Assembly: GCF_027889715.1 (NCBI RefSeq)
Contig: NZ_JAPJZH010000008.1
Span: 124,001-188,000 of the forward strand
From: Allohoeflea poritis
Lineage (GTDB): Bacteria > Pseudomonadota > Alphaproteobacteria > Rhizobiales > Rhizobiaceae
Direction: 5' to 3'
Length of the DNA: 64,000 nt
Both the position numbers and the translations under genes were made by a program. Below, in pieces: positions 31,795 to 53,975 of this stretch. The notes below the pieces were generated by a model that worked only from the letters and a program-made list of their open reading frames with translations, made no database searches and was not told the origin of the DNA. Numbering within the stretch: position 1 is the stretch's first letter; each line of letters starts with the position of its first letter.

Positions 31795-33804
31795 ATGCAA
31801 TTTGACAAAAGGCGGCCGGGGGGTCTGCTAGCCGGAGTCGCATCGAGTGTGATGCGTTCAATTCATCAGATGTTCCTCGAAATGGGGCGACATCAAAAGC
31901 GCGCCATTTTCATGGCCGTTGACGGCATTGCTATTGTGATCTGCATGATCGCAGCGATGGCGTTCCGTTTTGGTGAGCTGGATTTTCCCGACCGCGGCAA
32001 CCTGACATGGCTCCTTGTCGCCCTTCCGATCATAGGGATAGTCGCCTACCAGATTCTGGGCCTCTATGATGTCCTGATCCGCGCCATGGAAAGCCGGATG
32101 ATCGCCATCGTCGCAGGCGGCGCGATCACATTGATGCTTTTCGTCGCGGCAGCATCCCATATGGACAGCGGTGTCGATATTCCGAGGGCCGTGCCGCCGA
32201 TCTTCGGGATCCTGGTTTTTCTGGCAGTGGGGCTGAGCCGCATACTGGCCCGTGCCTATTTCCAGCATGTGACCAGCGGTCTGAACATTCGCGAAAACGT
32301 CCTTATCTACGGTGCCGGAGCAACGGGCACGCAATTGGCCGCGGCAATTCAAAGCGGCAACCAGCAGCGTGTCGTCGGATTTCTCGACGACGATCCGTTG
32401 CTGAAAGGAACGATGATCCGCGGATGCAGGGTCTACGCACCGGACAAGATCGGGAAGCTGCAGCAGCGCTTCAATATCACGCGCGTGCTTTTTGCCATGA
32501 CCAATGCCACGCCGACACAGAAGCGCAATGTCGTTGCCCGGCTGGCGCCATACAAGCTGGAACTTCACACCATCCCGCCCTTGAGCGACATACTTCGCGG
32601 AAAAGCGGATGTTCAGCAAGTCAAGGAGATACGTATTGACGATCTGCTTGGCCGTTCCGCAGTCAGTCCGATTTCAAGTCTCTTCGACGAGGCGATCCAG
32701 GGCAAGAACATCCTGGTGACCGGAGCGGGCGGATCCATCGGTTCTGAATTGTGCCGGCAGATTTTAAAGGCCAGGCCGAGCAAGCTGATCCTGCTCGAGA
32801 TCAGTGAAATCTCGCTCTACAACATCGAGAAGCGACTGCAGAAGCATCTTCCGGACAGCGACGCAATCGAGGTCGTTTACGCGCTTGGCGACGTTCGGGA
32901 CCGCCAGCGTGTACGCACGCTGCTTCTGCGCCATGGTGTGAATATTGTCTACCACGCTGCGGCCTACAAACATGTACCCATCGTCGAGGCCAATCCGTCC
33001 CAGGGTGTGATGAACAATATCTTCGGCACGCTCAGTGTCGCACAGGAGGCCGTGGGCTGCGGCGTCGAACGATTCATCCTCATATCCACGGACAAGGCGG
33101 TGCGGCCCTCCAACATGATGGGTGCGTCCAAGCGTCTCGCCGAGCGCGTTGTGCAGAACATCCAGGCAACCACCGACGAAACGGTTTTCGCCATTGTGCG
33201 CTTTGGCAATGTTCTGGGTTCATCCGGCTCCGTGATCAATCTGTTTGCAGAGCAGATTCGCAATGGCGGGCCCGTTACGGTCACCCATGAAGAGGTCACA
33301 CGCTATTTCATGACGCCGCAGGAAGCGGCGCAGCTCGTTGTCCAGGCGGGCTCGCTGGCCAAGGGCGGCGAAGTGTTCGTTCTGGATATGGGAGAGCCGG
33401 TCCGGATCAAGGACCTCGCCAGGCTGATGATCCAGTTGAGCGGCAAATCCGTCAGGGATGATGAAAACCCCGATGGCGACATCGGAATCGAAGTCATTGG
33501 GCTGCGACCCGGCGAGAAGCTGTTCGAAGAACTGCTCATTACCGACCGTGTCGTCGGAACCACGCATCCAAAAATTCTGCGCGCCGAAGAAAAAGGTGAT
33601 GCAGAGGGCCCGACCATGACCGATCTGATGCTTCGCCTTGAACACGACATCGAAAGCGAGGATCCGAACCGGCTCCGCTTGACCATGCAGGATGCCGTGG
33701 AAGGCTATACACCTGATGTTGATGAGGCCGAGCGCCGCAGGCGTCAGACGGCCAAGGTGCTTAGTCTTGAAGAGCGAAGAGCTTTCCGGCAAAAAGGGCA
33801 CTGA
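31795..33804 (+). CDS. FlaA1/CapD/WbpM-type membrane NDP-sugar 4,6-dehydratase
   Basis: A 669-residue protein. About four N-terminal transmembrane helices (residues 35-150) are followed by a first Rossmann domain (near 165) and a catalytic SDR domain with TGAGGSIGSE near 307. The active site has STDKAV (near 431) and MxxxK in place of YxxxK, as in the WbpM/FlaA1 group. These enzymes turn UDP-GlcNAc into the 4-keto-6-deoxy sugar that starts many surface glycans. The start is the ATG at 31795, where the positively charged N-terminus begins. It likely feeds the initiating transferase at 52050-52589. Confidence 0.92.
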   Translation: MQFDKRRPGGLLAGVASSVMRSIHQMFLEMGRHQKRAIFMAVDGIAIVICMIAAMAFRFGELDFPDRGNLTWLLVALPIIGIVAYQILGLYDVLIRAMESRMIAIVAGGAITLMLFVAAASHMDSGVDIPRAVPPIFGILVFLAVGLSRILARAYFQHVTSGLNIRENVLIYGAGATGTQLAAAIQSGNQQRVVGFLDDDPLLKGTMIRGCRVYAPDKIGKLQQRFNITRVLFAMTNATPTQKRNVVARLAPYKLELHTIPPLSDILRGKADVQQVKEIRIDDLLGRSAVSPISSLFDEAIQGKNILVTGAGGSIGSELCRQILKARPSKLILLEISEISLYNIEKRLQKHLPDSDAIEVVYALGDVRDRQRVRTLLLRHGVNIVYHAAAYKHVPIVEANPSQGVMNNIFGTLSVAQEAVGCGVERFILISTDKAVRPSNMMGASKRLAERVVQNIQATTDETVFAIVRFGNVLGSSGSVINLFAEQIRNGGPVTVTHEEVTRYFMTPQEAAQLVVQAGSLAKGGEVFVLDMGEPVRIKDLARLMIQLSGKSVRDDENPDGDIGIEVIGLRPGEKLFEELLITDRVVGTTHPKILRAEEKGDAEGPTMTDLMLRLEHDIESEDPNRLRLTMQDAVEGYTPDVDEAERRRRQTAKVLSLEERRAFRQKGH

Positions 33805-33880
33805 CATCAGACCTTCACCACTGCCGCGCCCGCAACTGAAATGCGGTTCGCGCTAGTTTGCCGTCCAGGCCGGGAATACA

Positions 33881-35296
33881 ATGATAATACCTGTGGTTGT
33901 CAGCGGTGGCGTCGGTTCACGCCTTTGGCCCGCGTCGCGCCAATCCCATCCGAAGCCGTTCCTGCCGGTTGAAAACGGCAAAAGCTTGCTGCTGAACACC
34001 TTTGTCCGCGCGGCGTCGCTGCCGGACGTTACCGACATTGTGACCATTACCGCGCGCGACTCATCCTTCAAGACCATTGCCGAATACGAGAAGCTTGATG
34101 CAGCGCATATCGCCAGCCACCTGATCCTGGAGCCGATGGGTCGCGACACGGCGGCCGCGGCCGCGGCGGCCACGGTTTATGTCGAAATGAATTTCGGCCG
34201 CGACGCCGTGATCCTGTTCCTTGCCGCCGACCACCTGATCCGCGACACCGCCGCTTTCAGCAAGGCGGTCACAGCAGCCAAAACTCTGGCCGAACGCGAT
34301 CGGGTCGTAACATTCGGCATCGAGCCGAACCGCCCCGAAACCGGTTATGGCTACCTCGAAGTCGATAAAGACAACGTTATCCGGTTCGTTGAAAAGCCGG
34401 ACAGCAAGACGGCGGCTGCTTATCTGGACGCGGGAAGCTTCTTGTGGAACTCCGGCATGTTCTGTTTCAGGGCTGGCGCCATGCTGGATGCCATGGACAG
34501 GCACTGCCCGGATGTGCTGCGGGCGGCTCGCAAAGCGATCGAAAAGGGCATACGACAGGACATCGGGTCACGAACGGCTGAAACAACCCTCGATGCGGCT
34601 GCATTTGCGGACGCGCCCAAAATATCCATCGACTATGCTGTGATGGAAAAGATCGCGAACCTGTCGGTTGTCAGGGCCGATATCGGCTGGAGCGACGTTG
34701 GCACATGGTCGTCTCTTTCCGAATGCTACACACCCGACGATAAGGGCAACACAGCCATCGGAGACACGGCACTTGTCGACGCAAGCAACTGTTTCGTCAG
34801 TTCACAAGGCCGGCTCGTCAGCCTTGTCGGCGTGAACGATCTCGCCGTCATAGACACGCGCGACGCCACGCTTGTGGTCGACAAGGCGCGGTCGCAGGAC
34901 GTCAAGGTTCTGTTCGAGAAACTGAGGGACGCGGGGCACGAAGCCCATGCAAGCTTCCCGACCGGCCACCGTCCCTGGGGCTCCTATACCATTTTGGACG
35001 AGGGCGCCGGATACAAGGTCAAGCGTATCGAGGTAAAACCCGGCGGTTGCCTGAGCCTGCAATCCCACAAGCATCGCTCCGAGCACTGGACAGTGGTCCA
35101 GGGCGTTGCCCATGTGGTCAACGGGGACGAGCAACTGGTGCTCAATCCGAATGAATCGACCTATATCGAGTGCGGAAACATCCACCGCATGGAGAATCGC
35201 GGAACCGAGCCGATGACACTGATCGAAGTCCAGACCGGTTCCTATCTGGGTGAAGACGACATCGTGCGCTACGAGGACATCTACGGGCGCTCGTAA
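33881..35296 (+). CDS. manC: Mannose-1-phosphate guanylyltransferase/mannose-6-phosphate isomerase
   Basis: A 471-residue bifunctional type II enzyme. The N-terminal nucleotidyltransferase has [19 protein letters not shown] at residues 8-26 and FVEKP near 168. The C-terminal cupin isomerase has RPWGSY and the metal-site segment [12 protein letters not shown]. It makes GDP-mannose from fructose 6-phosphate through mannose 6- and 1-phosphate (with a phosphomannomutase not encoded here), the precursor for Gmd and Fcl. Its last 16 bases overlap the convergent fcl gene, leaving no room for a terminator between them. Confidence 0.95.
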
Positions 35297-36231: not shown

Positions 36232-36236
36232 GCGAC

Positions 36237-37322
36237 CTACTCGTGATAATTATAGGCGGAATAGCCGTGGCTTTTCACCAGCTCATCGCGGGCCGCCGAC
36301 TGCAGGTCCTCGCGCATCATTTCCGCGACAAGGTCATCAAAACTGGTCTCAGGCTTCCAGCCGAGCTTTTCTCTCGCTTTTGAAGAATCGCCGAGCAGCG
36401 TCTCGACTTCCGCGGGCCTGAAATAGCGCGGATCGACGGCAACAATGCATTTTCCGGATCCGTCGTAACCCTTTTCTTCGATACCCTCGCCTTCCCAGCG
36501 GATCTCGATGCCGGCTTCCCTGGCCGCGGCATCGACAAAATCACGAACGCTGTATTGAACGCCCGTGGCTATCACAAAGTCCTCGGGAGCTTCCTGCTGC
36601 AGCATCAGCCACATCATGGTCACGTAGTCCCTGGCATGGCCCCAGTCGCGTTTCGCATCCAGATTGCCGAGGTAAAGGCAGTCCTGCAGTCCGAGTTTGA
36701 TGCGCGACAGCGCCCGGGTGATCTTGCGGGTCACGAATGTTTCGCCGCGCAACGGGCTTTCATGATTGAACAGGATGCCGTTGCAGGCATACACGCCATA
36801 AGCCTCCCGGTAATTGACGGTTATCCAGTAGGCATAGAGCTTGGCGACCGCGTAGGGAGAACGCGGATAAAAAGGCGTCGTCTCGGTCTGCGGCACCTGC
36901 TGAACCAGGCCATAAAGCTCCGACGTGGATGCCTGGTAAAAGCGCGTCTTGTTCTCCAGCCCCAAAATGCGTATCGCCTCGAGAATGCGCAGGGCGCCCA
37001 GCGCATCCGAATTCGCCGTGTATTCGGGCTCCTCGAAGGAAACGGCCACGTGCGACTGCGCGGCAAGATTGTAGATCTCGTCGGGCTGCACCTGCTGGAT
37101 TGTGCGCACCAGGCTGGAGGAATCCGTAAGGTCCCCATAGTGCAGGATCATTCTCGGATTCTCGACATGCGGATCCTGGTACAGATGGTCGATCCTGTCG
37201 GTATTGAACAATGACGACCGGCGCTTGATGCCGTGGACGGTGTATCCCTTGCCCAGGAGAAACTCCGCCAGATAGGCGCCGTCCTGTCCGGTGATGCCTG
37301 TAATCAACGCAACTTTGCTCAA
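36237..37322 (-). CDS. gmd: GDP-mannose 4,6-dehydratase
   Basis: A 361-residue SDR enzyme that converts GDP-mannose to GDP-4-keto-6-deoxy-mannose. The N-terminal [16 protein letters not shown] Rossmann motif, the catalytic STSELYG, YAVAK (Tyr-x-x-x-Lys) and the [14 protein letters not shown] segment are present. The frame is open upstream, but family members begin right before this Rossmann strand. The best start is the TTG at 37322 with GGGAA seven bases upstream. It is divergent from cysD; the 228-bp gap between must hold both promoters. Confidence 0.95.
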
Positions 37323-37550
37323 TGTTCGTTTCCCGTATGCAACTGATGGCCGACCGCCGCCGTTCCTAGCAATCCGTATCGTCAATTGAAAGCCCATTCC
37401 TCGCGCCGTCACCGGACAAAGTCCGCCAGATGAGTTGAATCCCGATATGTCGCAAAATGCAATGGAACATAATTTCATTCGCTATTTACAAAAGAAATGT
37501 TTCATGTTTCCTGTCTATATCGAATTTTCTCATTTTGCGACGGAGCGATC

Positions 37551-39029
37551 GTGGAAGCGTTTCCTGACAAGGCCCTGCAAAACCGGCCTGGCAAGAATGG
37601 CTTAGCCGAGCCGTGGACCATTGAGCTGTTGCACGCCTCGCTGGAGGAGGACGGGCCGGCCACCTCGAAGCGGACGGTAGAACGCAGCGTCGTTTCCAAA
37701 GGCCTGCTGCCGCCGGCACTTTCTCTGAACGACATCGCCGATGAAAATGGCAGGCCCTTGCGCAGATTTGCTGCCGAAGCCCTTTTAAACAAAGCACGCC
37801 GCGAAAGGACCGTCTCCCTGTTCGTCCAGATGCACCGGACACCCTCCGGCAAACCGTTGCTGGCCGCCAATGACGGACGGCAGGCACGGCGCTGGGTTTT
37901 TGTGGACACATCCGATCCGCAGGATGAAGAACTGACCGCGGCGCTTGACGCACTGTGCGGCGATAGCGCAATCCTGTTGTGGCCGCACGGCGAACTCTGC
38001 GCACGCTTGCGCCGGCTGACCGATTCGAACGGCAGGATCGCAGAACGCCTGGCAACGGCACTCGCGGTCTACGGGCCTTCCTATACCGGCAAGCCTGAGA
38101 CACCGCTGCCTGTCAAGCGCAGCGCGGCAACCACCCTCTCCCACCTCGACCGCCTTGAGGCGGAGAGCATGCATATCATGCGCGAGGTCGCGGCAACCGC
38201 CGACAATCCCGTCATGCTCTACTCTGTCGGCAAGGATTCGTCGGTCATGCTGCACCTGGCGAAAAAGGCCTTCCACCCGGCCCCTCCCCCGTTTCCGCTT
38301 CTGCATGTCGATACCGGATGGAAGTTCCAGGAGATGTACCAGTTCCGAGACCGCACGGCCGCCGACGCGGACATGCGATTGCTGACCCATATCAATCGGG
38401 AAGGCGTGGAAAGGAACATCAATCCGATCGATCACGGCAGTTCCGTTCACACCGACATCATGAAGACACAAAGCCTGAAACAGGCGCTGGACGGCCATGG
38501 CTTTGATGTCGCCTTCGGCGGCGCGCGGCGCGATGAGGAAAAAAGCCGCGCCAAGGAGCGCATTTTCTCCTTCCGCACCAGCAGCCATCGCTGGGACCCG
38601 AAGAACCAGCGCCCGGAACTCTGGAACCTCTACAATACGGCGATCGCGAAGGGCGAGAGCATCCGCGTCTTCCCGATCTCCAACTGGACGGAGTTGGATG
38701 TGTGGCAATATATCCACCGCGAAAACATCCCCATCGTTCCGCTCTATTTTGCCGCCTTGCGCCCCTTTGTCCGCCGCGACGGCATGCTCATCATGCTTGA
38801 TGACGACCGGTTGCAGCCCTTGGAGGGCGAAAAGGTCGAATTCGGCCGAATCCGCTTCCGCACCCTTGGCTGCTACCCGTTGACCGGGGCGATTGAATCG
38901 GATGCCGATGATCTCGATTCAGTCATTCTCGAACTGCTTCACGCCAGAAACAGTGAACGGCAGGGCCGTGCCATAGACACGGATGTGTCCGCTTCCATGG
39001 AAAAGAAGAAGCTGGAAGGGTATTTCTGA
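37551..39029 (+). CDS. cysD: Sulfate adenylyltransferase subunit 2 with unrecognised N-terminal extension
   Basis: 492 residues from a GTG with GGAG five bases upstream. The last ~299 residues (from 38131, [18 protein letters not shown]) are a normal CysD with the PP-loop [10 protein letters not shown], the PAPS-reductase-like [11 protein letters not shown] strand and the C-terminal GCYPLTGAI segment. It adenylates sulfate to APS using ATP with CysN. The first ~193 residues match no family I know. They have a predicted mixed alpha/beta make-up, one tryptophan-rich strand ([11 protein letters not shown]) and no signal peptide, and ordinary CysD proteins lack them. It is coupled to cysNC by a TGATG overlap. 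Confidence 0.92.
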
Positions 39030-40912
39030 TGAATGCGCGCCAGGAAATCGACACCTATCTTGAGGGCCAGGCCGACCTTGAAACCCTGCGATTTATAACC
39101 TGCGGCAGCGTCGATGACGGCAAATCGACCCTCATCGGCCGCATGCTTTACGAATCGCAGATGATCCTCGACGACCAGCTTTCCGAACTGGAAAAGACCT
39201 CGTCAAAGATCGGCACGCAGGGCGAGCAGATCGACTTCGCGCTGCTGGTCGACGGGCTGAGCGCCGAGCGCGAACAGGGCATCACCATCGACGTTGCCTA
39301 TCGCTATTTTTCCACCGACCAGCGCAAATTCATCGTCGCCGACACGCCCGGCCACGAGCAATATACCCGAAACATGGTCACGGGCGCTTCGACCGCCGAT
39401 GCCGCGGTCGTCCTTGTCGACGCGCGCAAGGGTGTTCTCGAGCAGACCCGTCGCCATTCCTTCATCGTGTCCCTGCTCGGCATCCGCCATGTCGTTCTGG
39501 CGGTCAACAAGATGGACCTGGTCGGCTTCGACCAGGCAATCTTCGACGACATCGTCGCTGAGTACCAGGACCTGTGCCGGCGCTTCAACTTCGAAACGGT
39601 CACGCCGATACCGATTTCGGCGCTGGGCGGCGACAATGTCGTTGTGCGCTCGGCCAGCACGCCCTGGTACCGCGGCCCGACGCTGCTAGGTTTTCTCGGC
39701 GCCGTGGACACCCGCAAGGCGCTTGTCGATCACGGGTTCCGCATGCCCGTCCAGTGGGTCAACCGGCCCAATCTCGATTTTCGCGGCTATGCCGGGACGG
39801 TTCTGGCCGGCCGTATCGCGCCGGGCGACGACATCCGTATCCTGCCTTCGGGCGAAACCGCGACCGTCAAGGGCATTGTCCTGGGCGAAGACGAGCTTGA
39901 AGCCGCGCAGGCCGACCAGGCGGTCACGCTGACGCTCGACCGGGACGTCGACATCTCCCGCGGCGATGTACTGGTCGCCGCCAAGGATCCGTGCGAGACC
40001 TCGGATCAGTTCGAGGCCAGGATCGTCTGGATGGCCAGGGACAGCGGCTTTCACGGTCGCACCTACCTGATGAAAATCGGCACGGCGAGCGTCAACGCGG
40101 CGATCTCGGAAATCCGCCACACATACAATATCAACACCTTCGAGGAGATGATGGGCCGCTCGCTTGAGCTTAACGACATCTCCGTCGTCAAGCTCGCGCT
40201 CGACCGGCCCGTCGCCTTCGAGCCCTATGGCGACTGCCCGCCGATGGGCGCCTTTGTGCTGATCGACCGCCAGAACCACCAGACGGTGGCCGCCGGCATG
40301 ATCGATTTTGCACTGCGCCGGGCCGACAACGTTCACCGCCAGGCCGTCACGGTCGACAAGAAGGCCCGGGCAAAGCTCAATGGCCATCCGGGTCGTGTAT
40401 TGTGGTTCACCGGCCTGTCGGGCTCCGGCAAGTCGACCATCGCCAACGCGCTGGAAAAGAAGCTCCACGCGAAAGGCTTCCGCACCTACATTCTCGACGG
40501 CGACAATGTGCGCCTCGGCCTTAACCGCGATCTCGGCTTCACCGACGCCGACCGTGTGGAAAATATCCGCCGCATCGCTGAGGTCGCCAAGCTGATGGTC
40601 GACGCGGGCCTGATCGTCATGACCGCCTTCATCTCCCCCTTCCGCGCCGAACGCCAGATGGCCCGCGAGATGTTCGAAGAGGGCGAATTCGTCGAAATCT
40701 TCGTCGACACGCCGCTTGAAGTCGCCGAAGAGCGCGACCCGAAAGGGCTCTACCGCAAGGCAAGGCGCGGCGAACTGCCGAACTTCACCGGGATCGACAG
40801 CCCGTATGAGGCGCCAGAAGCGCCGGAGTTCCGATTGGAGACGGAGGGGGGGCAGGCCGAGAAATTGGCGGAGGGCCTGTTGAGCGGATTGAAGCTGGAA
40901 ATCGACGATTGA
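39029..40912 (+). CDS. cysN: Bifunctional sulfate adenylyltransferase subunit 1/adenylylsulfate kinase
   Basis: 627 residues. The N-terminal CysN GTPase has GSVDDGKST (G1), DTPGHEQY (G3) and NKMD (G4), followed by EF-Tu-like barrels to about residue 440. From about 450 comes an APS kinase (CysC) with P-loop GLSGSGKST and the [10 protein letters not shown] and FISPFRAER segments. With CysD it drives APS and then PAPS formation. The CysN-CysC fusion is the rhizobial NodQ-type arrangement used for sulfating surface sugars. Its place inside a glycan locus supports that use here over cysteine synthesis alone. Confidence 0.95.
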
Positions 40913-43885: not shown

Positions 43886-46800
43886 TCAGCTCATGTATTT
43901 GAAGCTCTCTCCATCTAGTGACATATTCGGTGAATAGAAGGGATCGGTTCTGATTTCGGTTTCCCATCGTTCTGTCATGGTTGCAACTTCACCTGCAAAG
44001 CGCCGTTTCTTTTCCGGCGTGTCTTCTTTTCCGCGGGAAAGACTCTCGTGGTGATATAGCTCGGCGAATGGCGTCCAAACATTCCAGTATCCAGCCTCGC
44101 GAACTTTGAGACAAAAATCTACATCGTTGAACGCCACTTGAAGATGATGCTCATCCAAGCCGCCAACCTCTTTGTATACCTCTTTTCTCACAATCAAACA
44201 CGCGCCAGTTACCGCCGAGAGATTTTGAATAACCTTGGAGCGTCCAAAATAACCGGGATCGTCTTGGGTTAGTCCCAGATGTGCATGATTTGCAACACCT
44301 CCAAGCCCAAGTATGACTCCACCATGCTGAACTGTATTATCCGGATAGTATAGCTTCGCTCCCACACAACCGATCCGGTTCTGCTGAGCCCAAGAGACCA
44401 TCTCCGTCAGCCAATCAGGCGAAATCACTTCGACATCATTGTTTATCAGACCAACGATATCACCCTTTGCTTGCTGAACGGCTTCATTGTTTATGGCAGA
44501 AAAGTTGAACGGATAACTGTATGAAAGCACACGAACTCGCCGATCTTGTGCGACCTTCTCCAAATAGGTCGTTGTCTCTGGCTCTTGCGACTCGTTGTCA
44601 ACAATGATTATTTCGTAGTTCGGATATGTCGTCTTTTCGAGAATCGATTCAACCGCTACCCGCAGAAGTTCAACGTGGTCGCGTGTCGGTATTATCAGGC
44701 TTACCAAGGGTTTGGGATTGCGAACGGTATGGCGAAGGCGGTAAAATGGTAGGCCAGGCACTGGTTCAACAGTTGCGCCCGATCCAGTACGTTTGCGGTG
44801 CGCCTCAAGCGCCCGAAAACCAGCCCTGTAGGGATAGTCTTTTTCAGAACCAGATAGAGCCGTTGAACCTGAAACTGCGCGCCAGTGATATAGGATTCTC
44901 GGTATATGGATGATCTGAGCCGGATCAATCTGCTCCGTAATCCGAAGGTTGATGTCGTAATCCTGACTACCTTCAAATCCTGGCCGCCATCCTCCAACTG
45001 ACTTTACGAGGTCAGCGCGAAGAACGGTCAGGTGATTGAAATAGTTCATGGAGTGAAACAGTTCTGGAGAGAATCCGGGCTTAAAGTGCGGATCAAATCG
45101 ATTGCCATGCTCATCGATCTTGTCCTCATCGCTGTAGATTAGGCCCGCATCTGGATTCTCGGCAATCGCCCCCGCAACTTCTGCCAGAGCATGGGGTCTC
45201 AATACGTCATCATGATCCAGCAGAGCGATCCACCCGCCACTGGCGAGTTCAAACGCTGAGTTGGTCGCTCGACATATGTGCCCGTTTTCCGTCCGATGAA
45301 TAACTTTGATCCGCCCGTCTCGCTGGCTCCAAGCATCCAACTGCGCCTTGACGTGTCTGTGGGTAGACGCATCATTCGCTATACAAAGTTCCCAGTTGCC
45401 GTAGAGCTGGTTCAAAACCGAGTTTATTGCCTCGTCAAGAAGCTTCATTGGCGTGTTGTAGACTGGCATTAAAATACTGAACTTAATGGACCGCTCGAGC
45501 GAGTCCACCTTTGCCCGAACCACCTCGCGATCACGACTGTCATTGTAATCGTGTATCTTGATCCAATCTGAGTATCGTCCCCTTCCTTCTTGTGATGCAC
45601 GATCCTTGTCCAGCGTTATCAGCCTCGTGCCGTCATATGAGCGCATGTACGCGATGGCTCGGCGATAAAGCGCTAGCGGATCATGTCGATATGTGCTTAA
45701 TCCCAGTCGTAAAAGATAATGGAAGCGGCGCAAAAAACCGTACCGATAAACTTGGATATTTGTTGTCTGCGTGGTTACATTTTCGTCGGATGGATCGAGC
45801 CGCAGCTGTCGTAGCCGCGTAGGTGATAGGAAAACAGCTTCATACTCGCCTGATACTCCATTTGGACGGAGGCCAATCGACGTTTCTTCGCGAAATCCGT
45901 CGCCAATATCTAGATACAGCCGTGGACGAACCCCAACAGAAGAACCGATACAAGCTTTCGCCTTATAAACTCCTTTCCCGAGGCTGAAACCCGGTCCGAT
46001 TAGAATTTGAGGATCATCGTTACTAGGCAACAACACACCATCAACCAAATCAGCATTAAATACTGCTGTTTCGTACAATGACATCAGATTTTTTGGAACG
46101 AAGGCATTGCGCAATGCTCGAAGCGGCGCCGTCAACTTCCAAGACGTAGAATCGTGGAACTCATTTGTCACTCTTTCCAACAGTCCGCCAGCGGCCTGCG
46201 CTAGATTTGTTTGACGACGAAGAGCTGTTTTAAGTTCATCGATGTTTCGTTCACGTTCCGCTGCTTGACCTTGAAAATCTTCGATTCTCGACGTGAGCAC
46301 CACTACATCTCGCTCCAGCTTCCCAACACGCTTGGTATTTTCGAACGCCTTGGCGTCCAAGATTTTCAACTGCTCCTCAAACTGCAATTTATCCGTCTCA
46401 ACGCCTTTCCGCAGTTCTTCAAATTCTTTATGCAATGTGCGAATTCGCAACTCCAGTTGTGTCGCCGCTGTTTGCTTTGCGTGAAGCTCGACTTCGAGTG
46501 TGTCGACACGTCTTTTGGCAGCATCTTCCATTCCTATTAGAATCGGCATCGCGCGTGCCAGTTCGGTACGCACCGCATCAAGACTTGCAAGTGCTTTCGG
46601 TGTGTCAGGAGTACGCTCAAGCTGCCGCAACGAAGAAAATGAGGCTTTAACCCAGCCACAAAGCAAGGGATCTAATGCGACTTCCTCGTCACTACTGGTA
46701 TGGTGCCTGAGATCAGGTCGCAAAAATCTCTCGATGTCAGACGAAACTTGGTCGATTGAGTTTGGAAACGAGAGGTTCAGTGCTTGAAAACGGTCCGCAA

Positions 46801-47470
46801 CAGTACGCCAATCCGCCTGCAAATCCTCGTAACTTGCGAACAAGCGATCAATACTTCGAGTCGCCTCCTCCGCCTCAAGTACATGAGTCAGCCACAATAA
46901 TGCGGCGTCGCCGCGGCCTCGAGTTTGCTGCCATGTTGGGGTGCGCTCAACAAGCGAAGCCATGACTTCAAGAGGATTTCGAAATTGCAGAATTGAAACG
47001 AGCCTGATCTTCCGTGCCCCAAGAACCTCTCGATAGAGAGGCACAAAGCGGCAGATCCGCGGATCCTTCAACACAATAAGCGGCGCGTCACCATACTCTT
47101 CGTCAAGCAGTCGAACGATCTCCGCTTTGAAATGGTCAAGTCGTTTTTTCGGCAGCCGCTCACCAAGATCGAGCCTACGCCAATCGATCCAGGAACTCCC
47201 GGCTTCGGCAAGCATCTGGTCATGAAGTTCAACAAGCCGAGCCGGCTCCCAGTGACCGGTTTCATTGCCCGGACCGGCGCCAAGCATGTTCTTGGGCAAC
47301 TCCGCACCTAAAAGACTGAGGACCCGGGTTAGAGCACTCGTTCCGGAGCGGTGCATACCGAGCACGAGGATGCAAGTGCGTTTGTCTTTGGACCGGAAAG
47401 GGTGTTCCTCACCAGCAGCCGTCTCCACGTCTGTACTGACAGTCTTATCGTCTAGGCTTGTAGCGGTCAT
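43886..47470 (-). CDS. Sulfotransferase - coiled coil - double GT2 glycosyltransferase fusion
   Basis: About 1194 residues. N-terminus (residues ~30-255): a sulfotransferase domain with the 5'-PAPS loop LGMHRSGTSAL and the 3'-phosphate segment RNPLEVMASL. Residues ~313-420: a strongly charged heptad coiled coil. Residues ~430-640: a region I do not recognise, beta-rich at first. From ~660: a GT2 domain (SILMPVYNTP, ANDAST, LDHDDVL, YSDEDKI). From ~919: a second GT2 domain (SLIIPTRDHVELL, VDNES, NNDVEV, ending in a HHESLSRG helix). No signal peptide or helix, so probably cytosolic at the membrane face. Start is the ATG at 47470 (GTG at 47482 possible). Visibly AT-richer codon use than neighbours. 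It likely builds and sulfates the glycan. Confidence 0.88.
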   Translation of the reverse strand: MTATSLDDKTVSTDVETAAGEEHPFRSKDKRTCILVLGMHRSGTSALTRVLSLLGAELPKNMLGAGPGNETGHWEPARLVELHDQMLAEAGSSWIDWRRLDLGERLPKKRLDHFKAEIVRLLDEEYGDAPLIVLKDPRICRFVPLYREVLGARKIRLVSILQFRNPLEVMASLVERTPTWQQTRGRGDAALLWLTHVLEAEEATRSIDRLFASYEDLQADWRTVADRFQALNLSFPNSIDQVSSDIERFLRPDLRHHTSSDEEVALDPLLCGWVKASFSSLRQLERTPDTPKALASLDAVRTELARAMPILIGMEDAAKRRVDTLEVELHAKQTAATQLELRIRTLHKEFEELRKGVETDKLQFEEQLKILDAKAFENTKRVGKLERDVVVLTSRIEDFQGQAAERERNIDELKTALRRQTNLAQAAGGLLERVTNEFHDSTSWKLTAPLRALRNAFVPKNLMSLYETAVFNADLVDGVLLPSNDDPQILIGPGFSLGKGVYKAKACIGSSVGVRPRLYLDIGDGFREETSIGLRPNGVSGEYEAVFLSPTRLRQLRLDPSDENVTTQTTNIQVYRYGFLRRFHYLLRLGLSTYRHDPLALYRRAIAYMRSYDGTRLITLDKDRASQEGRGRYSDWIKIHDYNDSRDREVVRAKVDSLERSIKFSILMPVYNTPMKLLDEAINSVLNQLYGNWELCIANDASTHRHVKAQLDAWSQRDGRIKVIHRTENGHICRATNSAFELASGGWIALLDHDDVLRPHALAEVAGAIAENPDAGLIYSDEDKIDEHGNRFDPHFKPGFSPELFHSMNYFNHLTVLRADLVKSVGGWRPGFEGSQDYDINLRITEQIDPAQIIHIPRILYHWRAVSGSTALSGSEKDYPYRAGFRALEAHRKRTGSGATVEPVPGLPFYRLRHTVRNPKPLVSLIIPTRDHVELLRVAVESILEKTTYPNYEIIIVDNESQEPETTTYLEKVAQDRRVRVLSYSYPFNFSAINNEAVQQAKGDIVGLINNDVEVISPDWLTEMVSWAQQNRIGCVGAKLYYPDNTVQHGGVILGLGGVANHAHLGLTQDDPGYFGRSKVIQNLSAVTGACLIVRKEVYKEVGGLDEHHLQVAFNDVDFCLKVREAGYWNVWTPFAELYHHESLSRGKEDTPEKKRRFAGEVATMTERWETEIRTDPFYSPNMSLDGESFKYMS

Positions 47471-47523: not shown

Positions 47524-48405
47524 CTATCCAGCATGGGGACGGTCGTCAGACCCGGCAGGCCTGCTTCGATACTTGCCCGCTTTTGGAAAACAGGCTGCGA
47601 GCCTGCTTGCCGCCAACCTCGAATTCATCGGTCGCCTGGCTCTGGTCGGATATTCCGCCGATGTGATCCGCCGTATTTTGGCAAAGGGCCCACCCTTAAC
47701 GCTGCTCTCTCGCATTATTTTCTCCGCGAAATCCGCCCAGCTCATCGCTTCCTTCCCGGCCAGATGGAACACCCCCCAGGGTGTTACCTCGCTTTGCGCG
47801 AGCGGTCCCAGGCAGATACTCAAAATCGTGTCGGCGATTTCATGGGCCGATGTTGGATTTCCGATCTGGTCGTCAACCACAGGGATCTCATCGCGCGTTT
47901 CAGCAAGCCGCAACATAGTATTCCTGAAGTTTTTGCCATAAGGACTATACACCCAGGACGTACGCAAGATGATATGCTGTTCGTTGGCCGCGGCAACCGC
48001 CCTTTCGCCAGCAAGCTTGCTGGCTCCGTAGACGCTCTGCGGATCCGGCTGGTCATCTTCCCTGTAGGGCCGGTCAAGTTCGCCCGAAAAGACATAGTCT
48101 GTGGAAAGATGAATAACTGGCGCGCCCATCACCCTTGCTGCAGCGGCCACGGCACCCGCACCGGTTTCGTTGACGGCAAACGCGATATCCGGTTCGTCCT
48201 CCGCCTGATCGACGCCCGTATACGCCGCCGCCGAGACAACAACGTCCGGTCTGTGGCGCGCAACAACATCCCGGACTTCCGCCGGCTTCAGCAGATCAAG
48301 CTCTGGTCGGCCGACAGCCACCAGTTCCACATCACCGCGATCTTGGGCCATGTCCTGCAAGCAGCGCGACACCTGCCCCTTTGTGCCGGTGACGAGTATC
48401 CTCAA
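47524..48405 (-). CDS. rmlD: dTDP-4-dehydrorhamnose reductase
   Basis: A 293-residue SDR, last step of dTDP-L-rhamnose synthesis. The N-terminal [13 protein letters not shown] cofactor loop, the STDYVFSG segment near 98 and the YGASK Tyr-x-x-x-Lys near 130 are intact. It overlaps rmlB by four bases (ATGA). Transcription order is rmlA, rmlC, rmlB, rmlD on the minus strand. Confidence 0.95.
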
Positions 48406-49472
48406 GCTGCACCCTCTTTCAGTTTGCCGAGCCGGTTGCCGTTATAAGTGCCTTCACGGATCGGCCGCCACCACCAGTCGTTCTCCAGAAACCAATCGAC
48501 GGTCCGCGCAAGGCCGCTTTCAAAACTCTCAGACGGCGCCCAGCCGAGTTCGCGGCGAATCTTGGAGGAATCGATCGCATAGCGCCGGTCATGGCCGGGC
48601 CGGTCGGGCACAAAGGTAATCAGGTCGCGGTATTTCTTGCCGCCGGCGCGCGGACGAACCTGATCGAGAATATCGCAGATCGCCTCGACCACCTGCAGAT
48701 TTGTGCGCTCGGCATTGCCGCCGATATTGTAGCTCTCGCCGACTGTTCCTCGCGTAAGCACCGTTGCCAGCGCCTGTGCGTGGTCCTCGACTTGCAGCCA
48801 GTCCCGCACATTTTCGCCCTTGCCGTAGACCGGTAGCGGCTTTTCTTCGAGTGCATTTAGAATAACCAGTGGAATGAGTTTTTCCGGGAAATGGAACGGG
48901 CCATAATTGTTCGAGCAATTGGACAACACCACGGGAAGGCCATAGGTCTCGCCCCAGGCGCGCACCAGATGATCAGAAGCTGCCTTGGATGCCGAGTAGG
49001 GCGAAGACGGCGCATAGGGCGTTTCTTCGGTAAAAATGCCGCTCTCGAAGGGCAGGTCACCGAAAACCTCATCCGTCGAGACATGGTGAAAACGGAACTG
49101 CGCCTGGTTTTCTTCAGCAAGCAGACGCCAGTGGGTAAGTGCAGCGCTCAGCAGGTGATAGGTTCCCACGACATTGGTCTGGACAAAGGCCGCCGGCCCG
49201 TCGATGGAGCGATCGACATGGCTTTCCGCCGCAAGATGCATGATCGCCTCGACCCGCTCCTGTTGAAGGATCTGCAACACACGGGACTCGTCACAGATAT
49301 CAGCCTTGATAAATTTGTAGTTGTGGCTGTTTTCGATTGACCGGAGCGAAGCGAGATTGCCTGCATAGGTCAGCTTGTCGAGATTGATGACGAAATTGCT
49401 GGGATCTTTGACCAAATGGCGACAAACCGCCGATCCGATAAATCCCGCACCGCCTGTAACGAGAATCCGCAT
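48402..49472 (-). CDS. rmlB: dTDP-glucose 4,6-dehydratase
   Basis: A 356-residue SDR making dTDP-4-keto-6-deoxy-glucose. The [13 protein letters not shown] loop is at residue 7, the catalytic STDEVFGDL segment near 130 (Thr-Asp-Glu) and YSASK near 158. [15 protein letters not shown] is family-typical. It lies 17 bases after rmlC. Confidence 0.96.
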
Positions 49473-49489
49473 GCCCCTCTCCGCGTCCT

Positions 49490-50038
49490 TTAGAACTTCT
49501 CCGCGTCAGCCAGCAACGGCGCCGCAGCGTCCTTTTCCGACAAAATAATATCCTTGCTGTCTATCGGCCACTTGATACCGATTTCCGGATCGTCAAACCG
49601 GATCGCGCGGTCGTGCTGCGGCGAATAAAACTCCGTCACCTTATAAACCACCTCGGTGTCATCCTCCAGTGTCAGAAATCCGTGCGCGAACCCCTTCGGC
49701 ACAAAAATCTGGTTCCAGGCTTCGGCGGATACGACCAGCGAAACCCAACGACCGAAAGTGGCCGAGGTCCGACGAATGTCGACCACGACATCGAGGATCG
49801 AACCACGGGAAACCCGTACCAACTTGTCCTGCGCTGCGGGAGGAAGCTGGTAATGTAGCCCCCTTAGGATGCCCTTGGCGGCCGAATAGGAAAAATTGTC
49901 CTGAACGAATTCGAGGCAGATTCCTGCTTCTTCCAACCGTAGCTTATTGTAGGTCTCCGAGAAAAAGCCCCTGCTGTCGCCATGGCGGTTTGGCTTTATT
50001 TCGAAAACACCCTCAAGGCCAAGTTCCCGCGTTTCCAT
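49490..50038 (-). CDS. rmlC: dTDP-4-dehydrorhamnose 3,5-epimerase
   Basis: A 182-residue cupin epimerase. The [11 protein letters not shown] segment, [12 protein letters not shown] with the catalytic His, and the [15 protein letters not shown] segment are all present. Its start shares one base with the rmlA stop (TGATG), so the two are translationally coupled. Confidence 0.95.
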
Positions 50039-50913
50039 CAGGCGAGATCCCTGGCGCGCCGATCAAGATATGCAGCGTATGGCGTATTGCCCAGCTGGCT
50101 GGCCCGCCGCAAAACTTCATCGGGCTTCAGCCAGCCCATCACCAAGCCGATCTCCTCCGGGCACGCGATCTTGATGCCCTGCCGGTGCTCAATCGTTCGC
50201 ACGAAGGCAGAGGCTTCGTGCAGGCTGTCATGCGTTCCAGTGTCAAGCCAGGCATAGCCGCGGCCCAACTGATGGACAAGCAAGTCACCCCGCTCCAGAT
50301 AGGCATTGTTTACGGCGGTTATCTCGAGTTCGCCGCGATCGGACGGCGCAATTGTTCGCGCGATATCCAGAACATCATTGTCATAAAAATAGAGGCCAGT
50401 CACAGCCCAGTTTGATTTCGGTGACTGAGGCTTTTCCTCGATGCTTAGGGCTCTTTTGGTTTCCGTATCGAATTCGACGACCCCGTAACGATGCGGGTCA
50501 TCGACGTGGTAAGCAAAGACGGATGCGCCTTCCGATCGAGACGCAGCCTGCTGGCACAATCGCGAAAGCCCATCGCCGAAATAGATATTGTCGCCAAGGA
50601 TCATTGAAACACCGTCGCTACCGACGAAATCCCGGCCGATAATGAACGCCTCGGCCAGCCCGTTCGGTTGCGGCTGTTCGGCATAGCTCAGGCTTACGCC
50701 ATAACTGCTGCCGTCGCCCAACATCGTCTCGAATATAGGCAGGTCCCGCGGTGTGGAGATGATCAGGATTTCACGAATGCCCGCGAGCATCAGGACGCTC
50801 AGCGGATAGTAAATCATCGGCTTGTCGTAGACCGGTAACACCTGTTTTGAAACCGCCAGTGTAAGCGGATAAAGGCGTGTTCCACTGCCGCCCGCAAGGA
50901 TAATGCCTTTCAT
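50038..50913 (-). CDS. rmlA: Glucose-1-phosphate thymidylyltransferase
   Basis: A 291-residue nucleotidyltransferase making dTDP-glucose. The [11 protein letters not shown] loop is at residue 8, KPMIYYPLS near 25 and ILGDNIYFG near 108. The ATG at 50913 follows GAGG at six bases; a GTG at 50928 is in frame but would bury that site. First gene of the rmlACBD unit, 25 bases after the GT2 gene. Confidence 0.96.
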
Positions 50914-50938
50914 TTGTACCTCAACCACGTTACTTCGT

Positions 50939-51886
50939 TCATAGCCTGTTCAATAGAGCCGCAACACACAACCCTAAATTTCCTTTGTCGGATTGCCGAT
51001 ATATGCCAGAGTTGCGCAGTCGTTGCAGCCGGCGTAGCGGGGATTTCTCGACCCTGAGCAACTGAAATTCATCGACAACCGCTTGGGACTCCTCTTCCAA
51101 AAGGCCGTAGCAAATCTGCAGACTTGCCAGGTTGTTGTCGCTCCACGATGCGAGCTGCCCGCCGACCAGCCGCCGGATGCGTTGAATTTGCGAACGCCAG
51201 CTTATGTTGTCACCAACCAGATTGCTGCCGTGCCGACGGTAACCGATATGCGGCTCCGGATCGTAGATCACCGTGCCGCCGCAGCCCGAGATCATGATGT
51301 AGCACCACCAGTCGTGGCTGACGAATGACGTTCTGCGCGCACTCTCCGAAAGCACAGCCCAGGCGGCCCTGTTGAACACCATTGTATTGCCGCCAGCGAT
51401 GTTCTGGACAATTGCGTTACCAAAACCCGGTCTTCGGCGAAATTGCGGCGAGTGGCCCAATACACGACCGGCTTCATCGATTATCCGTGTACGGCCACCG
51501 TACAGTGCCGGGCGATCGGGATCGCACCTAGAAAGCGCGCGGATCGCCACTTCGAGCTTGTCCTGGTCCCAAATGTCATCCTGATCGCTGAATGCGACAT
51601 AGTCGGCATTGATCTTGTCGTTGCGCATCAGGCTTCTGAAGTTTTCCGAAAATCCGCTTTGGGGTCCGTCAACGATATGAAACTCACCCTTGCTCCATTC
51701 CCCTTTGCGGGCATTGAGGATCGCCAGCGAGCTGTCTGTCGAGCCATCATCGCTCACCCAGAGGTCAATCTGTTCAACGCTCTGGTTTCCAATGGATTGA
51801 AGCTGCTCGTGAAGAAATCGCGAACCGTTGTAGACACCCATCAAAACGGCAATTTTACCGGTTTGCGCTGCAGGCACGTTCTTCAC
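50939..51886 (-). CDS. GT2-family glycosyltransferase, rhamnosyltransferase-like
   Basis: A 315-residue inverting glycosyltransferase with [19 protein letters not shown] near residue 14, the nucleotide-binding SDDGSTD near 45, and the metal-binding DQDD near 97 (FSDQDDIW). It resembles rhamnosyl- and glucosyl-transferases of O-antigen loci. Next to rml genes it probably adds L-rhamnose, but the acceptor is unknown. The start is a GTG seven bases after AGGA. Confidence 0.88.
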
Positions 51887-52589: not shown

Positions 52590-52604
52590 CGCCTGCGTAT
52601 CCGG

Positions 52605-53975
52605 TTAACGGTCCCGCCCCGCCTGCAAGTTGGCATCCGGAAGCCGCGAAAGGGTGCAGAACGCGGTTATCAGCGAAAGGTAATAGAGCGTCGAGACGTC
52701 GTGATAGAAAAGCAGGTTGGTTACGCCGTAGAGCGCATAGGAGATCGTGACGCAAAAAATACCGCCGAAAACAAGTGGCGGCGCGTTGCGCAACACCATC
52801 AGCGGCACGAACAGGACGGCAAGCAGCGACAATAATCCGAGCACGCCGGAGGCGACGAGATCGGTCAGATAGCCATTGTGAAGATGCGAATATGTGAAGA
52901 ACCTGGCGTTTTCCGGGTCTTTCGCAATCGCCGCGCGCACGACGTCCTGCCGGCCCCAGCCGGTCAGCGGCCGCTCCATAAAGGCAGCCAGGCCAGCCTT
53001 GTAGAGCAAGATGCGGATGGAAATGCTCTCTTCCTCGAGGCCGCTGTCCGTCGGCCGTTCGACCCGCTCGATGGCGAGTTCGATCCGGTGGGTCAGTTCC
53101 GGATCGGCCTTGATGACACCGAAGCTGAGCGCGCCGACCGCCATGGCAGCCAGCAGACCGCGCTTTGCCATGAAGACCAGGCCGAAATGGCGGTATCCCA
53201 TGACAAGCGCATAGGCGAAAAGCGTGATCATATAGGACAACAACGGACCGCGGCTTCCAGCACTGAGCAAGGCAAAAAGCGCCGCCAGCGCCCCGGCCGC
53301 CAGCAGCCATCGCATGGCCCCGCGAAAAAACAGCAGCCCGTGGATGCAAAGCAGGCCGGAAACCATGGTACCCAGCGCCAGGATCAGCGGATTGCCGCTA
53401 AAAGCCGAGCGCATATGTTCATGCGAGGACTGGCCAGCGATCAGAACGATCAGCGCCGCCAGAATGGCACCGCTTGCGGTGCCGGCAAAAAACACATTGG
53501 TCCAGTATGGTCTGACAAAACGCCTGAGCACCGGCATGACCGGGGCAAAGGCCAGAAACAGAATATTGCCGTAGACCGCACCGAAATGCTCCCAGGTGCC
53601 GGCGGGGATCGCATTGAGCACGGCGAAAAAGACCATGATCAGATAATAGGCCGCAAAGGCAGCGATGACGGGCTTTTCGACGGTATCGAAGCTACGGTTT
53701 TGCGGGTCGAACGCAAAGTAGAACAGCGCGACGAACCAGAAACCGACGGCAACAACCGAGCCGCCGCTGCCAATGCCCGGAAAAAGCAGGAAGAGGGCGA
53801 ACAGGCCGATTGCCCATCGCAACGAAGCGCTGACGTCGCTGCGATGGAAATGCACCCAGAACAGGCGGCTGAACACGCCGGTCGGTTCCGCCAATTGATC
53901 GCTCCCGCGCTGATGGTCCCCGCCGCTGAGGGTTATGAGAACCGGGGACACAATGCAAGCAGCGCAGCAGCGCAT
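52605..53975 (-). CDS. O-antigen ligase/polymerase-family membrane protein
   Basis: A 456-residue polytopic inner-membrane protein with about eleven helices, and the large periplasmic loop of WaaL/Wzy_C proteins around residues 300-370 (the GWGRQD and FFTYSHLHNGYLTD segments). It either ligates glycan to lipid A core or polymerises repeat units. The N-terminus is uncertain: the first 50 residues are poorly membrane-like, and a GTG start near residue 34 would fit as well. It is convergent with the initiating transferase gene, 16 bp apart. Confidence 0.85.
   Translation of the reverse strand: MRCCAACIVSPVLITLSGGDHQRGSDQLAEPTGVFSRLFWVHFHRSDVSASLRWAIGLFALFLLFPGIGSGGSVVAVGFWFVALFYFAFDPQNRSFDTVEKPVIAAFAAYYLIMVFFAVLNAIPAGTWEHFGAVYGNILFLAFAPVMPVLRRFVRPYWTNVFFAGTASGAILAALIVLIAGQSSHEHMRSAFSGNPLILALGTMVSGLLCIHGLLFFRGAMRWLLAAGALAALFALLSAGSRGPLLSYMITLFAYALVMGYRHFGLVFMAKRGLLAAMAVGALSFGVIKADPELTHRIELAIERVERPTDSGLEEESISIRILLYKAGLAAFMERPLTGWGRQDVVRAAIAKDPENARFFTYSHLHNGYLTDLVASGVLGLLSLLAVLFVPLMVLRNAPPLVFGGIFCVTISYALYGVTNLLFYHDVSTLYYLSLITAFCTLSRLPDANLQAGRDR

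What the first reader, a model, noticed from the sequence alone, without database searches (positions are those of the whole stretch)
31795..53975. A self-contained locus for a sulfated, fucose- and rhamnose-bearing surface polysaccharide
One locus carries a PAPS generator (CysD plus CysN-CysC), a sulfotransferase fused to glycosyltransferases, GDP-L-fucose genes (manC, gmd, fcl), the dTDP-L-rhamnose genes, a FlaA1/CapD dehydratase, an initiating transferase, a Wzm/Wzt exporter and a ligase/polymerase. Sulfated fucose-rich glycans are known mainly from algae and animals and only rarely from bacteria. The gene set predicts such a glycan made and sulfated in one pathway. The gene calls come from sequence; sulfation itself is inference.
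Basis: partly seen in the sequence, partly recalled or inferred. Interest (0 to 1): 0.78.

Follow-up and report, generated by a model that had tools for sequence, protein, structure and literature searches.

The report
Sulfated surface polysaccharide gene cluster
A bacterium of the Rhizobium family carries genes that most likely build a rhamnose- and fucose-containing sugar chain for its surface and add sulfate to it, possibly as a cap that tells the exporter when the chain is finished.

Summary
The gene inventory is real. The locus holds the genome's only APS kinase; a separate cysH-cysD-cysN set has no kinase and its CysH best matches APS reductase. So the window's CysD/CysNC supplies PAPS and is not needed for cysteine. 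The sulfotransferase (ST) domain keeps the PAPS-site residues in 26 of 26 aligned domains. All 24 family genomes with an ST relative have an APS kinase, against 141 of 199 overall.

New is the design: ST, coiled-coil-like spacer, two glycosyltransferases, beside a Wzt with a sugar-binding C-terminus. Comparison loci mostly hold methyltransferase or GT99 domains there. That C-terminus alone hit one of 72,556 plasmids, with an ST-GT protein and cysD/N/C, but also one of 50,697 phage records, with a methyltransferase. Sulfate as chain-ending cap is my leading, unproven reading.

The parts
30287..31468 (+). YeeE/TsuA-like sulfur-compound transporter (PF04143) at the head of the block; role in this pathway inferred only
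   Evidence: PF04143 202 bits; the 4 PDB hits are TsuA or Sulf_transp proteins, best E 4e-10; kept next to FlaA1 in G199 and G200
31711..33804 (+). Membrane UDP-GlcNAc 4,6-dehydratase of the FlaA1/PglF type (probably makes the first, QuiNAc-type sugar)
   Evidence: PF02719 388 bits; best PDB hit WlaL 5bju, E 6e-74
33881..35296 (+). ManC, mannose-1-P guanylyltransferase / mannose-6-P isomerase (GDP-mannose)
   Evidence: PF00483, PF01050, PF22640
35281..36231 (-). Fcl, GDP-L-fucose synthase
   Evidence: best PDB hit GDP-fucose synthetase 1bsv, E 1.6e-115; [16 protein letters not shown] and SHV stretches conserved in the alignment
36237..37478 (-). Gmd, GDP-mannose 4,6-dehydratase
   Evidence: PF16363 525 bits; 7kf3 E 3.7e-190
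37497..39029 (+). CysD, ATP sulfurylase small subunit, with a conserved ~200-aa N-terminal extension of unknown family (37497-38135)
   Evidence: NF009214 515 bits; extension open and conserved in 5 of 5 genus members compared, window included; found in 8 of 297 family genomes
39029..40912 (+). CysNC, ATP sulfurylase GTPase subunit fused to APS kinase (PAPS generator); the only APS kinase found in the genome
   Evidence: NF004035 973 bits; PF01583 in 1 place of the genome; GLSGSGKST and DGDNVR present
41088..42617 (-). Wzt, ABC exporter ATPase with C-terminal sugar-binding domain (Wzt_C; 41091-41615 used as query)
   Evidence: PF00005 and PF14524, E 1.7e-28; the true start is probably ~45 codons inside (matches start at residue 45-48)
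42487..43437 (-). Wzm, ABC exporter permease
   Evidence: PF01061 101 bits
43886..47464 (-). ST - spacer - GT2 - GT2 protein, 1192 aa
   Evidence: two PF00535 stretches; ST by relatives and PDB profile
46475..47395 (-). sulfotransferase domain of the above
   Evidence: GMHRSGTS and FRNPLEVMASL stretches; R16, T19, S20, K110, R139, S147 (domain numbering) invariant in 26 of 26 aligned domains
46127..46543 (-). coiled-coil-like spacer of the above (residues 308-446)
   Evidence: 94-residue heptad run at 353-446; longest in 200 shuffles 68; other measures not unusual
47524..50928 (-). rmlD, rmlB, rmlC, rmlA: complete dTDP-L-rhamnose pathway
   Evidence: PF04321, PF16363, PF00908, PF00483; gene gaps -4 to 17 bp
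50939..51886 (-). GT2 glycosyltransferase
   Evidence: PF00535 53 bits
52050..52589 (+). initiating sugar-phosphate transferase (PglC size, 179 aa)
   Evidence: PF02397 175 bits
52605..53975 (-). O-antigen ligase family protein (WaaL more likely than polymerase, given Wzm/Wzt; inference)
   Evidence: PF04932 68 bits

Best explanation
The locus builds an ABC-exported surface polysaccharide, probably LPS O-antigen, and sulfates it. (1) FlaA1 and the small initiating transferase put a QuiNAc-type sugar on undecaprenyl phosphate (inferred from families). (2) GDP-L-fucose and dTDP-L-rhamnose are made by manC/gmd/fcl and rmlABCD (supported by homology). (3) GT2 and the two GT2 domains of the 1192-aa protein extend the chain, probably with rhamnose (inferred). 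(4) CysD/CysNC make PAPS that cysteine synthesis does not need (well supported by sequence). (5) The N-terminal sulfotransferase domain, held off the GTs by a coiled-coil-like spacer, adds sulfate to the chain end and so stops growth, as methyl, phosphate or Kdo do in WbdD/WbbB systems (my leading inference). (6) The Wzt C-terminal domain recognises that sulfated end, Wzm/Wzt export the chain, and the WaaL-like protein attaches it (inferred). I give about 0.85 for sulfation of this glycan and about 0.4 for sulfate as the terminating cap; the number below is for the whole.
For: Sulfation: sole APS kinase found in the genome, in the locus; second cysD, beside cysH, with a kinase-less CysN; CysH best matches APS reductase 2goy (7e-47; the next are labelled PAPS reductases, 9e-34 and 1.2e-24) with CCG and GCEPC stretches. 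ST relatives and APS kinase co-occur: 24 of 24 against 141 of 199, Fisher p 1.4e-4. They lie within 25 kb of each other in 6 of 24 genomes (5 of 23 without our own), expected 0.39. In the genus, the 5 species with an APS kinase all have Sulfotransfer_1 proteins, the 3 without have none. Domain: 21 of 26 members match PF13469; 8 of the 11 PDB profile hits at E <= 1, the four best among them, are sulfotransferases, best 4.5e-4. Cap: scores of Wzt C-termini to the window's own are 139, 115, 110, 99 and 75 bits in five loci whose ST is fused to GTs, and 43 or less (two not detected) in ten other plasmid loci, although the ATPase-domain scores of pKTa005 (326) and C. braakii (324) are equal. The C-terminus of pKTa005 is nearer to those of the five other ST loci, window included (0.15-0.20) than to the ten others (0.03-0.09) or to L132 (0.09). 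The blind plasmid search hit one record of 72,556, with Sulfotransfer_2 - coiled coil - GTs and cysD/cysN/cysC. The same slot holds a methyltransferase or GT99 joined to GTs in five comparison loci. No methyltransferase, kinase-type cap enzyme or GT99 was matched in the window proteins scanned between 29349 and 53975.
Against: The window's own ST domain is below the Pfam cut-offs. No chemistry exists. A clear counter-example to a strict C-terminus/ST link: the unverified 'phage' record MT836085 (L132) has a Wzt C-terminus scoring 73.6 bits to ours, as high as pKTa005, followed by a methyltransferase gene; no ST was seen in the three frames after its Wzt or by tblastn with our ST; the other frames of its 14.4 kb were not scanned. 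I lowered the cap estimate for this (0.45 to 0.4). In Aeromonas salmonicida a sulfotransferase-domain gene beside wzt is reported without sulfate in the known O-antigen structure (passage). Only 4 of 52 ST neighbourhoods show a Wzt with this C-terminus, so the ST family must often act otherwise. The label test is weak: 173 of 8008 labelings reach the observed residual, 55 of 1001 after collapsing the three Mesorhizobium loci; with L132 counted as non-ST 193 of 12376 and 62 of 1365. Only the run length of the spacer exceeds shuffles; its peak heptad score and Pro-free length do not. The PAPS roles of the ST residues are recalled.
Confidence: 0.45

Rival explanations
1. The ST domain sulfates internal residues, most likely rhamnose, in every repeat as the fused GTs add them; termination is by something else. 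This is the ordinary sulfated-capsule reading.
For: ST relatives sit by rmlA+B+C in 23 of 52 loci; 3 of 34 long ones are fused to RgpF/WsaF-type rhamnan proteins. The Vibrio KMM 8419 authors propose rhamnose sulfation for an ST gene by the rml operon (passage). 48 of 52 ST neighbourhoods show no Wzt with this C-terminus, and one such C-terminus sits by a methyltransferase.
Against: It does not explain why the ST sits in the slot held by methyltransferase or GT99 domains, or why pKTa005, with another ST family, shares the Wzt C-terminus.
Confidence: 0.36
2. Sulfate goes onto L-fucose, as reported for KpsS of Mesorhizobium loti, by this ST or by another ST of the genome.
For: gmd/fcl/manC lie next to cysDNC here and in genus member G199. 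The genome has two more STs. KpsS fucosyl activity is stated in a review.
Against: gmd is near the ST in 2 of 52 loci and present in 5 of 24 ST genomes. G200 keeps cysDNC in the block with no gmd match and only a 33% fcl match in the 40 kb examined.
Confidence: 0.12
3. The ST-like domain is inactive or does not use PAPS here; the CysNC PAPS serves the genome's other two sulfotransferases.
For: Domain below Pfam cut-offs. Stf0-type and Sulfotransfer_1 genes elsewhere. Aeromonas precedent.
Against: All invariant residues of the aligned family are kept; co-occurrence and proximity with APS kinase.
Confidence: 0.1

Closest known systems
Sulfated capsule clusters of Cobetia marina KMM 1449 and Vibrio sp. 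KMM 8419 (PMC11766843, PMC11641403; passages read)
   Same: cysD + cysN/cysC in the polysaccharide cluster (second copies in the Vibrio), sulfotransferase, dTDP-Rha genes (GDP-Man too in Cobetia), ABC exporter; sulfated structures reported
   Different: Cobetia has kps-type exporter genes and kpsSC Kdo priming, the Vibrio a KpsT-type ABC exporter; here a PglC-size initiating transferase, Wzm/Wzt with C-terminal domain and a WaaL-like ligase; ST fused to GTs here
KpsS of Mesorhizobium loti (Townsend and Keating 2008, known to me only through the review PMC11625862)
   Same: polysaccharide sulfotransferase in a related bacterium; fucosyl activity is stated
WbdD and WbbB O-antigen terminators (recalled; MTase+kinase and GT99 examples seen)
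   Same: modifying domain joined to GTs or to a coiled-coil ruler, next to Wzm and a Wzt with C-terminal domain
   Different: the N-terminal domain is a sulfotransferase, not a methyltransferase, kinase or Kdo transferase; termination not shown
E. coli plasmid pKTa005_1 locus (NZ_CP147085.1)
   Same: rfbBDAC, wzm, wzt with related C-terminus (35%), ST-coiled coil-GT protein, cysD/cysN/cysC, a gene annotated as sugar epimerase/dehydratase of FlaA1 size
   Different: ST of another Pfam family (Sulfotransfer_2), other GTs, separate CysC, SLC13 permease; no publication on it was looked for
Sinorhizobium NodH sulfation with NodPQ (review passage on NodH; NodPQ recalled and in search listings)
   Same: glycan sulfation in Rhizobiaceae
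   Different: acts on Nod factor; different gene setting

Membership tests
PAPS-dependent sulfotransferase (PF13469/PF00685) | 5' phosphosulfate loop (GxxRSGT[ST]) | tested here: met
   R16, T19, S20 invariant in 26 of 26 aligned domains, window included; 25 of the 28 loci were used, 3 fragments left out; residue roles recalled
PAPS-dependent sulfotransferase (PF13469/PF00685) | 3' phosphate motif R...S | tested here: met
   R139 and S147 invariant in 26 of 26, aligned to the RNP...S stretch of solved sulfotransferases
PAPS-dependent sulfotransferase (PF13469/PF00685) | score over the curated family cut-off | tested here: not met
   17.3 bits (whole protein) and 21.1 bits (domain) against 27; 21 of 26 members match at E <= 0.01
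PAPS-dependent sulfotransferase (PF13469/PF00685) | sulfate transfer from PAPS | not testable with these tools
   needs an assay
PAPS-linked sulfated polysaccharide cluster (Cobetia/Vibrio kind) | PAPS genes beyond those for cysteine, with ST, nucleotide-sugar, GT and ABC genes in one cluster | tested here: met
PAPS-linked sulfated polysaccharide cluster (Cobetia/Vibrio kind) | sulfate in the purified polymer | not testable with these tools
   no chemistry
WbbB/WbdD-type chain terminator | N-terminal modifying domain joined to GTs, beside Wzm and a Wzt with C-terminal domain | tested here: met
WbbB/WbdD-type chain terminator | coiled-coil ruler between the domains | tested here: inconclusive
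   heptad run longer than in 200 shuffles, other measures not unusual
WbbB/WbdD-type chain terminator | methyltransferase, kinase or GT99 cap domain | tested here: not met
   ST instead; so not filed as a member, only as perhaps working like one
WbbB/WbdD-type chain terminator | C-terminal domain of Wzt matched to the cap | tested here: inconclusive
   ranking favours it, L132 is a counter-example, label test weak
GDP-L-fucose synthase (GMER/Fcl) | whole-length homology with conserved catalytic stretches | tested here: met
   1bsv E 1.6e-115
ABC-dependent LPS O-antigen | product attached to lipid A core | not testable with these tools
   only a WaaL-family gene (PF04932)

The most novel reading that the evidence does not exclude
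Sulfate is the chain-terminating cap of an ABC-exported O-antigen. One polypeptide polymerises the chain (two GT2 domains), measures it (coiled coil) and ends it by sulfation, and the Wzt C-terminal domain is a sulfated-end reader. Different ST families (Sulfotransfer_3-like in Rhizobiaceae, Sulfotransfer_2 on an E. coli plasmid) would have been placed in the same slot.
Probability: 0.38. Interest if true: 0.75.

Novelty: new variant of a known kind. Interest (0 to 1): 0.53.

Why it matters
If the sulfation reading holds, the locus adds a genus of Rhizobiaceae to the bacteria that make sulfated surface glycans and gives a clean genetic handle, because its APS kinase should have no role in cysteine synthesis. 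If the cap reading holds, it adds sulfate to the cap chemistries (recalled: methyl, phosphate, Kdo) that end O-antigen chains, and makes a sulfate-reading export domain directly testable.

Tried and rejected
'PAPS genes are for cysteine' was rejected on the APS-reductase-like CysH and the kinase-less CysN. That the first ~200 residues of the cysD frame are a chance open frame was rejected: the extension is open and conserved in 5 of 5 genus members, and third positions change most (46-62% of codons against 22-45% at the other two), though it is far less constrained than the CysD core and has more replacement than silent codon changes. It has no Pfam match, no convincing PDB relative (best E 0.43) and no plasmid match. 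A DNA search of the cysDNC-wzt stretch in plasmids found 439 records, none covering 80%; the 20 listed match over the cysDN part. No Rfam match at gathering threshold at 29000-57000. The Wzt C-terminus found no relative in viral contigs (a method for close relatives).

Comparison Wzt loci: 65 plasmid records had at least 80% coverage; besides pKTa005 I opened ten that I chose for variety and scanned large proteins of nine of them. Modifying domain joined to GTs: Pseudomonas asturiensis, E. coli RHB28 (GT99), Comamonas, Azospirillum (MTase-RgpF), Allorhizobium (about 6.5 kb from wzt). MTase without GT match: Citrobacter braakii, Enterobacter O9 (with kinase), Shinella. Nitratidesulfovibrio: cysC, a separate 229-aa ST and a pyruvyltransferase-MTase protein; its C-terminus shows no similarity to ours. 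Rhodospirillum: not scanned. Allorhizobium has cysD-cysNC, gmd and fcl but a C-terminus score of 32 bits. So sulfation genes as such do not predict the C-terminus.

Paper searches answered. None of the titles and abstracts listed describes a sulfate-terminated O-antigen; those exact words were not searched and subscription journals are mostly not held.
Full report
Setting. The window is G000:C53:124001-188000 of a 5.58-Mb genome in 54 contigs, completeness 100. The family is probably Rhizobiaceae in the GTDB sense: G186 of the same family has a contig of the same length as Pseudohoeflea NZ_JAHWQX010000002.1 (that genus's family is recalled). The window's genus was not named; 8 genomes of it are held.

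Gene content. Fcl and Gmd match solved GDP-fucose synthetase and GDP-mannose 4,6-dehydratase over nearly their whole length (1bsv E 1.6e-115; 7kf3 E 3.7e-190). The FlaA1-like protein matches WlaL (5bju E 6e-74), so a UDP-GlcNAc 4,6-dehydratase; with the 179-aa initiating transferase it suggests a QuiNAc-type first sugar (inference from recalled Rhizobium etli work; my paper search for it found nothing). GT2, rmlACBD, the ST-GT protein, wzm and wzt lie in one direction with gaps of -131 to 59 bp except 448 bp between the ST-GT gene and wzm. G+C falls to 50-53% at 42-48 kb against 56-65% in the other 2-kb steps.

Two modules. In genus member G199 the block sulfur transporter - FlaA1 - manC - fcl - gmd - cysD - cysNC is kept at 81-93% identity (67% for the CysD extension). 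In the 40 kb examined there, which begins at a contig end, no match to the ST-GT protein, rmlA, rmlC, rmlD or wzm appeared, only a 39% Wzt ATPase match; and G199 has no ST-GT relative at E <= 1e-20 in the genome. G200 keeps transporter, FlaA1, manC, an initiating transferase and cysDNC. G202 and G203 have cysDNC next to a TPR-sulfotransferase gene. The right half looks like a variable cassette. This tempers 'self-contained'. The genome also has an Stf0-type and a Sulfotransfer_1 gene.

PAPS supply. PF01583 occurs once in the genome, in the window's CysNC. The other CysD (C2) lies beside CysH and a 491-aa CysN without a kinase match. CysH matches the APS reductase 2goy at 7e-47; the next hits are labelled PAPS reductases (7lhr 9e-34, 2o8v 1.2e-24). 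It has CCG and GCEPC stretches, which I recall as typical of the iron-sulfur APS type. Cysteine can then be made from APS, and the APS kinase is left for sulfation.

The sulfotransferase domain. In the window it is below the Pfam cut-off. In 26 aligned domains (window and 25 of the 28 loci), R16, T19, S20, K110, P112, R113, R139, S147 and others are invariant. 21 of 26 match PF13469 at E <= 0.01. A profile of them finds 11 PDB sequences at E <= 1, 8 of them sulfotransferases including the four best (best 4.5e-4).

Genomic association. 24 of 199 family genomes have an ST relative and 141 of 199 an APS kinase at E <= 1e-20. All 24 are among the 141 (Fisher p 1.4e-4). ST and kinase lie within 25 kb in 6 of 24 genomes (expected 0.39; 5 of 23 without our own) and within 10 kb in 3 (expected 0.16; 2 of 23 without our own, p 0.011). 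Of 52 ST neighbourhoods (fetched, own genome and one duplicate left out; 43 are at least 14 kb long; several are close relatives, so not independent), 8 hold an APS kinase, 23 hold rmlA+B+C, 2 gmd, 0 fcl. In the genus, APS kinase is present in 5 of 8 (G085 gives only a 21-bit fragment with a stop); Sulfotransfer_1 proteins occur in exactly these 5; Sulfotransfer_3 in these 5 and in G201, which has no kinase.

Architecture. The ST is followed by a Pro-free stretch (308-446) with a 94-residue heptad run; the longest in 200 shuffles was 68, while peak heptad score (0.775; shuffles up to 0.95) and Pro-free length (139; shuffles up to 193) are not unusual. By a crude rule 17 of 33 long relatives have a similar spacer. 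Of 34 long proteins scanned (window included), 16 carry PF00535, 9 PF00534, 3 each WbsX, RgpF and WsaF. Only 12 of 55 ST frames resemble the window's own GT2 domains: the ST stays and the GT part changes.

The cap idea. Wzt here has the C-terminal domain PF14524. From memory, such domains read the end group of O-antigens whose chains are ended by methyl, phosphate or Kdo. Four other ST loci (L063, L066, L070, L071) have this exporter with related C-terminus (35-45%). A search of 72,556 plasmid records with the C-terminus alone gave one record, E. coli pKTa005_1 (35%, 1e-13). It carries rfbBDAC, wzm, wzt, a 1787-aa protein with Sulfotransfer_2, coiled-coil-like repeats, WbsX, GT2 and GT1, and cysD, cysN, cysC with an SLC13 permease. 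Its ST shows no significant BLAST similarity to ours. The same search of 50,697 phage records also gave one record, the unverified MT836085 (28.5%, 4e-13), which looks like a bacterial contig: its Wzt is followed by a methyltransferase, a GT8 and a GT2 protein, with no ST among them. In ten further plasmid loci, five have a methyltransferase or GT99 joined to GTs, three a methyltransferase (one with a kinase) beside Wzt, one a separate ST, one was not scanned. Scores to the window's C-terminus: five fused-ST loci 139-75 bits, L132 73.6, the ten others 43 or less, at equal ATPase scores for pKTa005 and C. braakii (326, 324). Label tests are suggestive only: 173 of 8008 and 55 of 1001 without L132, 193 of 12376 and 62 of 1365 with it as non-ST.

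Literature. Cobetia and Vibrio sulfated capsules with PAPS, ST and rml genes (passages); KpsS fucosyl activity through a review (passage); Aeromonas ST-domain gene without sulfate in the known structure (passage). Hence the kind is known; of the fused, exporter-linked variant I found no account in the listed searches.

Verdict. Confirmed observation; interpretation partly right; sulfated ABC-exported glycan about 0.85; sulfate cap about 0.4 (lowered from 0.45).

Noticed in passing
window 37497-38135 (+): CysD carries a ~200-aa N-terminal extension (WTIE..., SKRTVER..., LFVQ...ANDGR...WPHG) with no Pfam match; in 8 of 297 family genomes, and part of the CysD frame in the three read outside the genus.
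   Followed up: partly
window 30287-31468 (+): TsuA/YeeE-like thiosulfate-type transporter kept upstream of FlaA1 in G199 and G200; it might feed sulfur to the pathway.
   Followed up: partly
L128 (E. coli pKTa005_1, NZ_CP147085.1): A plasmid typed as conjugative, from river water, carries what looks like a complete sulfated-polysaccharide locus with cysD, cysN, cysC and an ST-coiled coil-GT protein.
   Followed up: partly
L139 (Allorhizobium pseudoryzae plasmid): gmd, fcl, wzm/wzt and cysD-cysNC together on a plasmid, but with a methyltransferase-GT fusion instead of an ST fusion.
   Followed up: partly
genus genomes G085, G164, G201: Three of eight genus members lack an intact APS kinase and Sulfotransfer_1 proteins; G201 keeps one Sulfotransfer_3 match without visible PAPS supply.
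   Followed up: no
L110:13649-15769 and L112:7387-9555: In G203 and G202 cysDNC ends against a TPR-sulfotransferase gene, near a very large frame of 1781 or 2142 aa.
   Followed up: no
L132 (MT836085.1): A record filed as 'Bacteriophage sp.' holds a Wzt gene with PF14524, a methyltransferase and glycosyltransferases and looks like a bacterial contig.
   Followed up: partly
window 42000-48000: G+C of 50-53% against 56-65% in the other steps of the window, suggesting imported DNA for the ST-GT and exporter genes.
   Followed up: no
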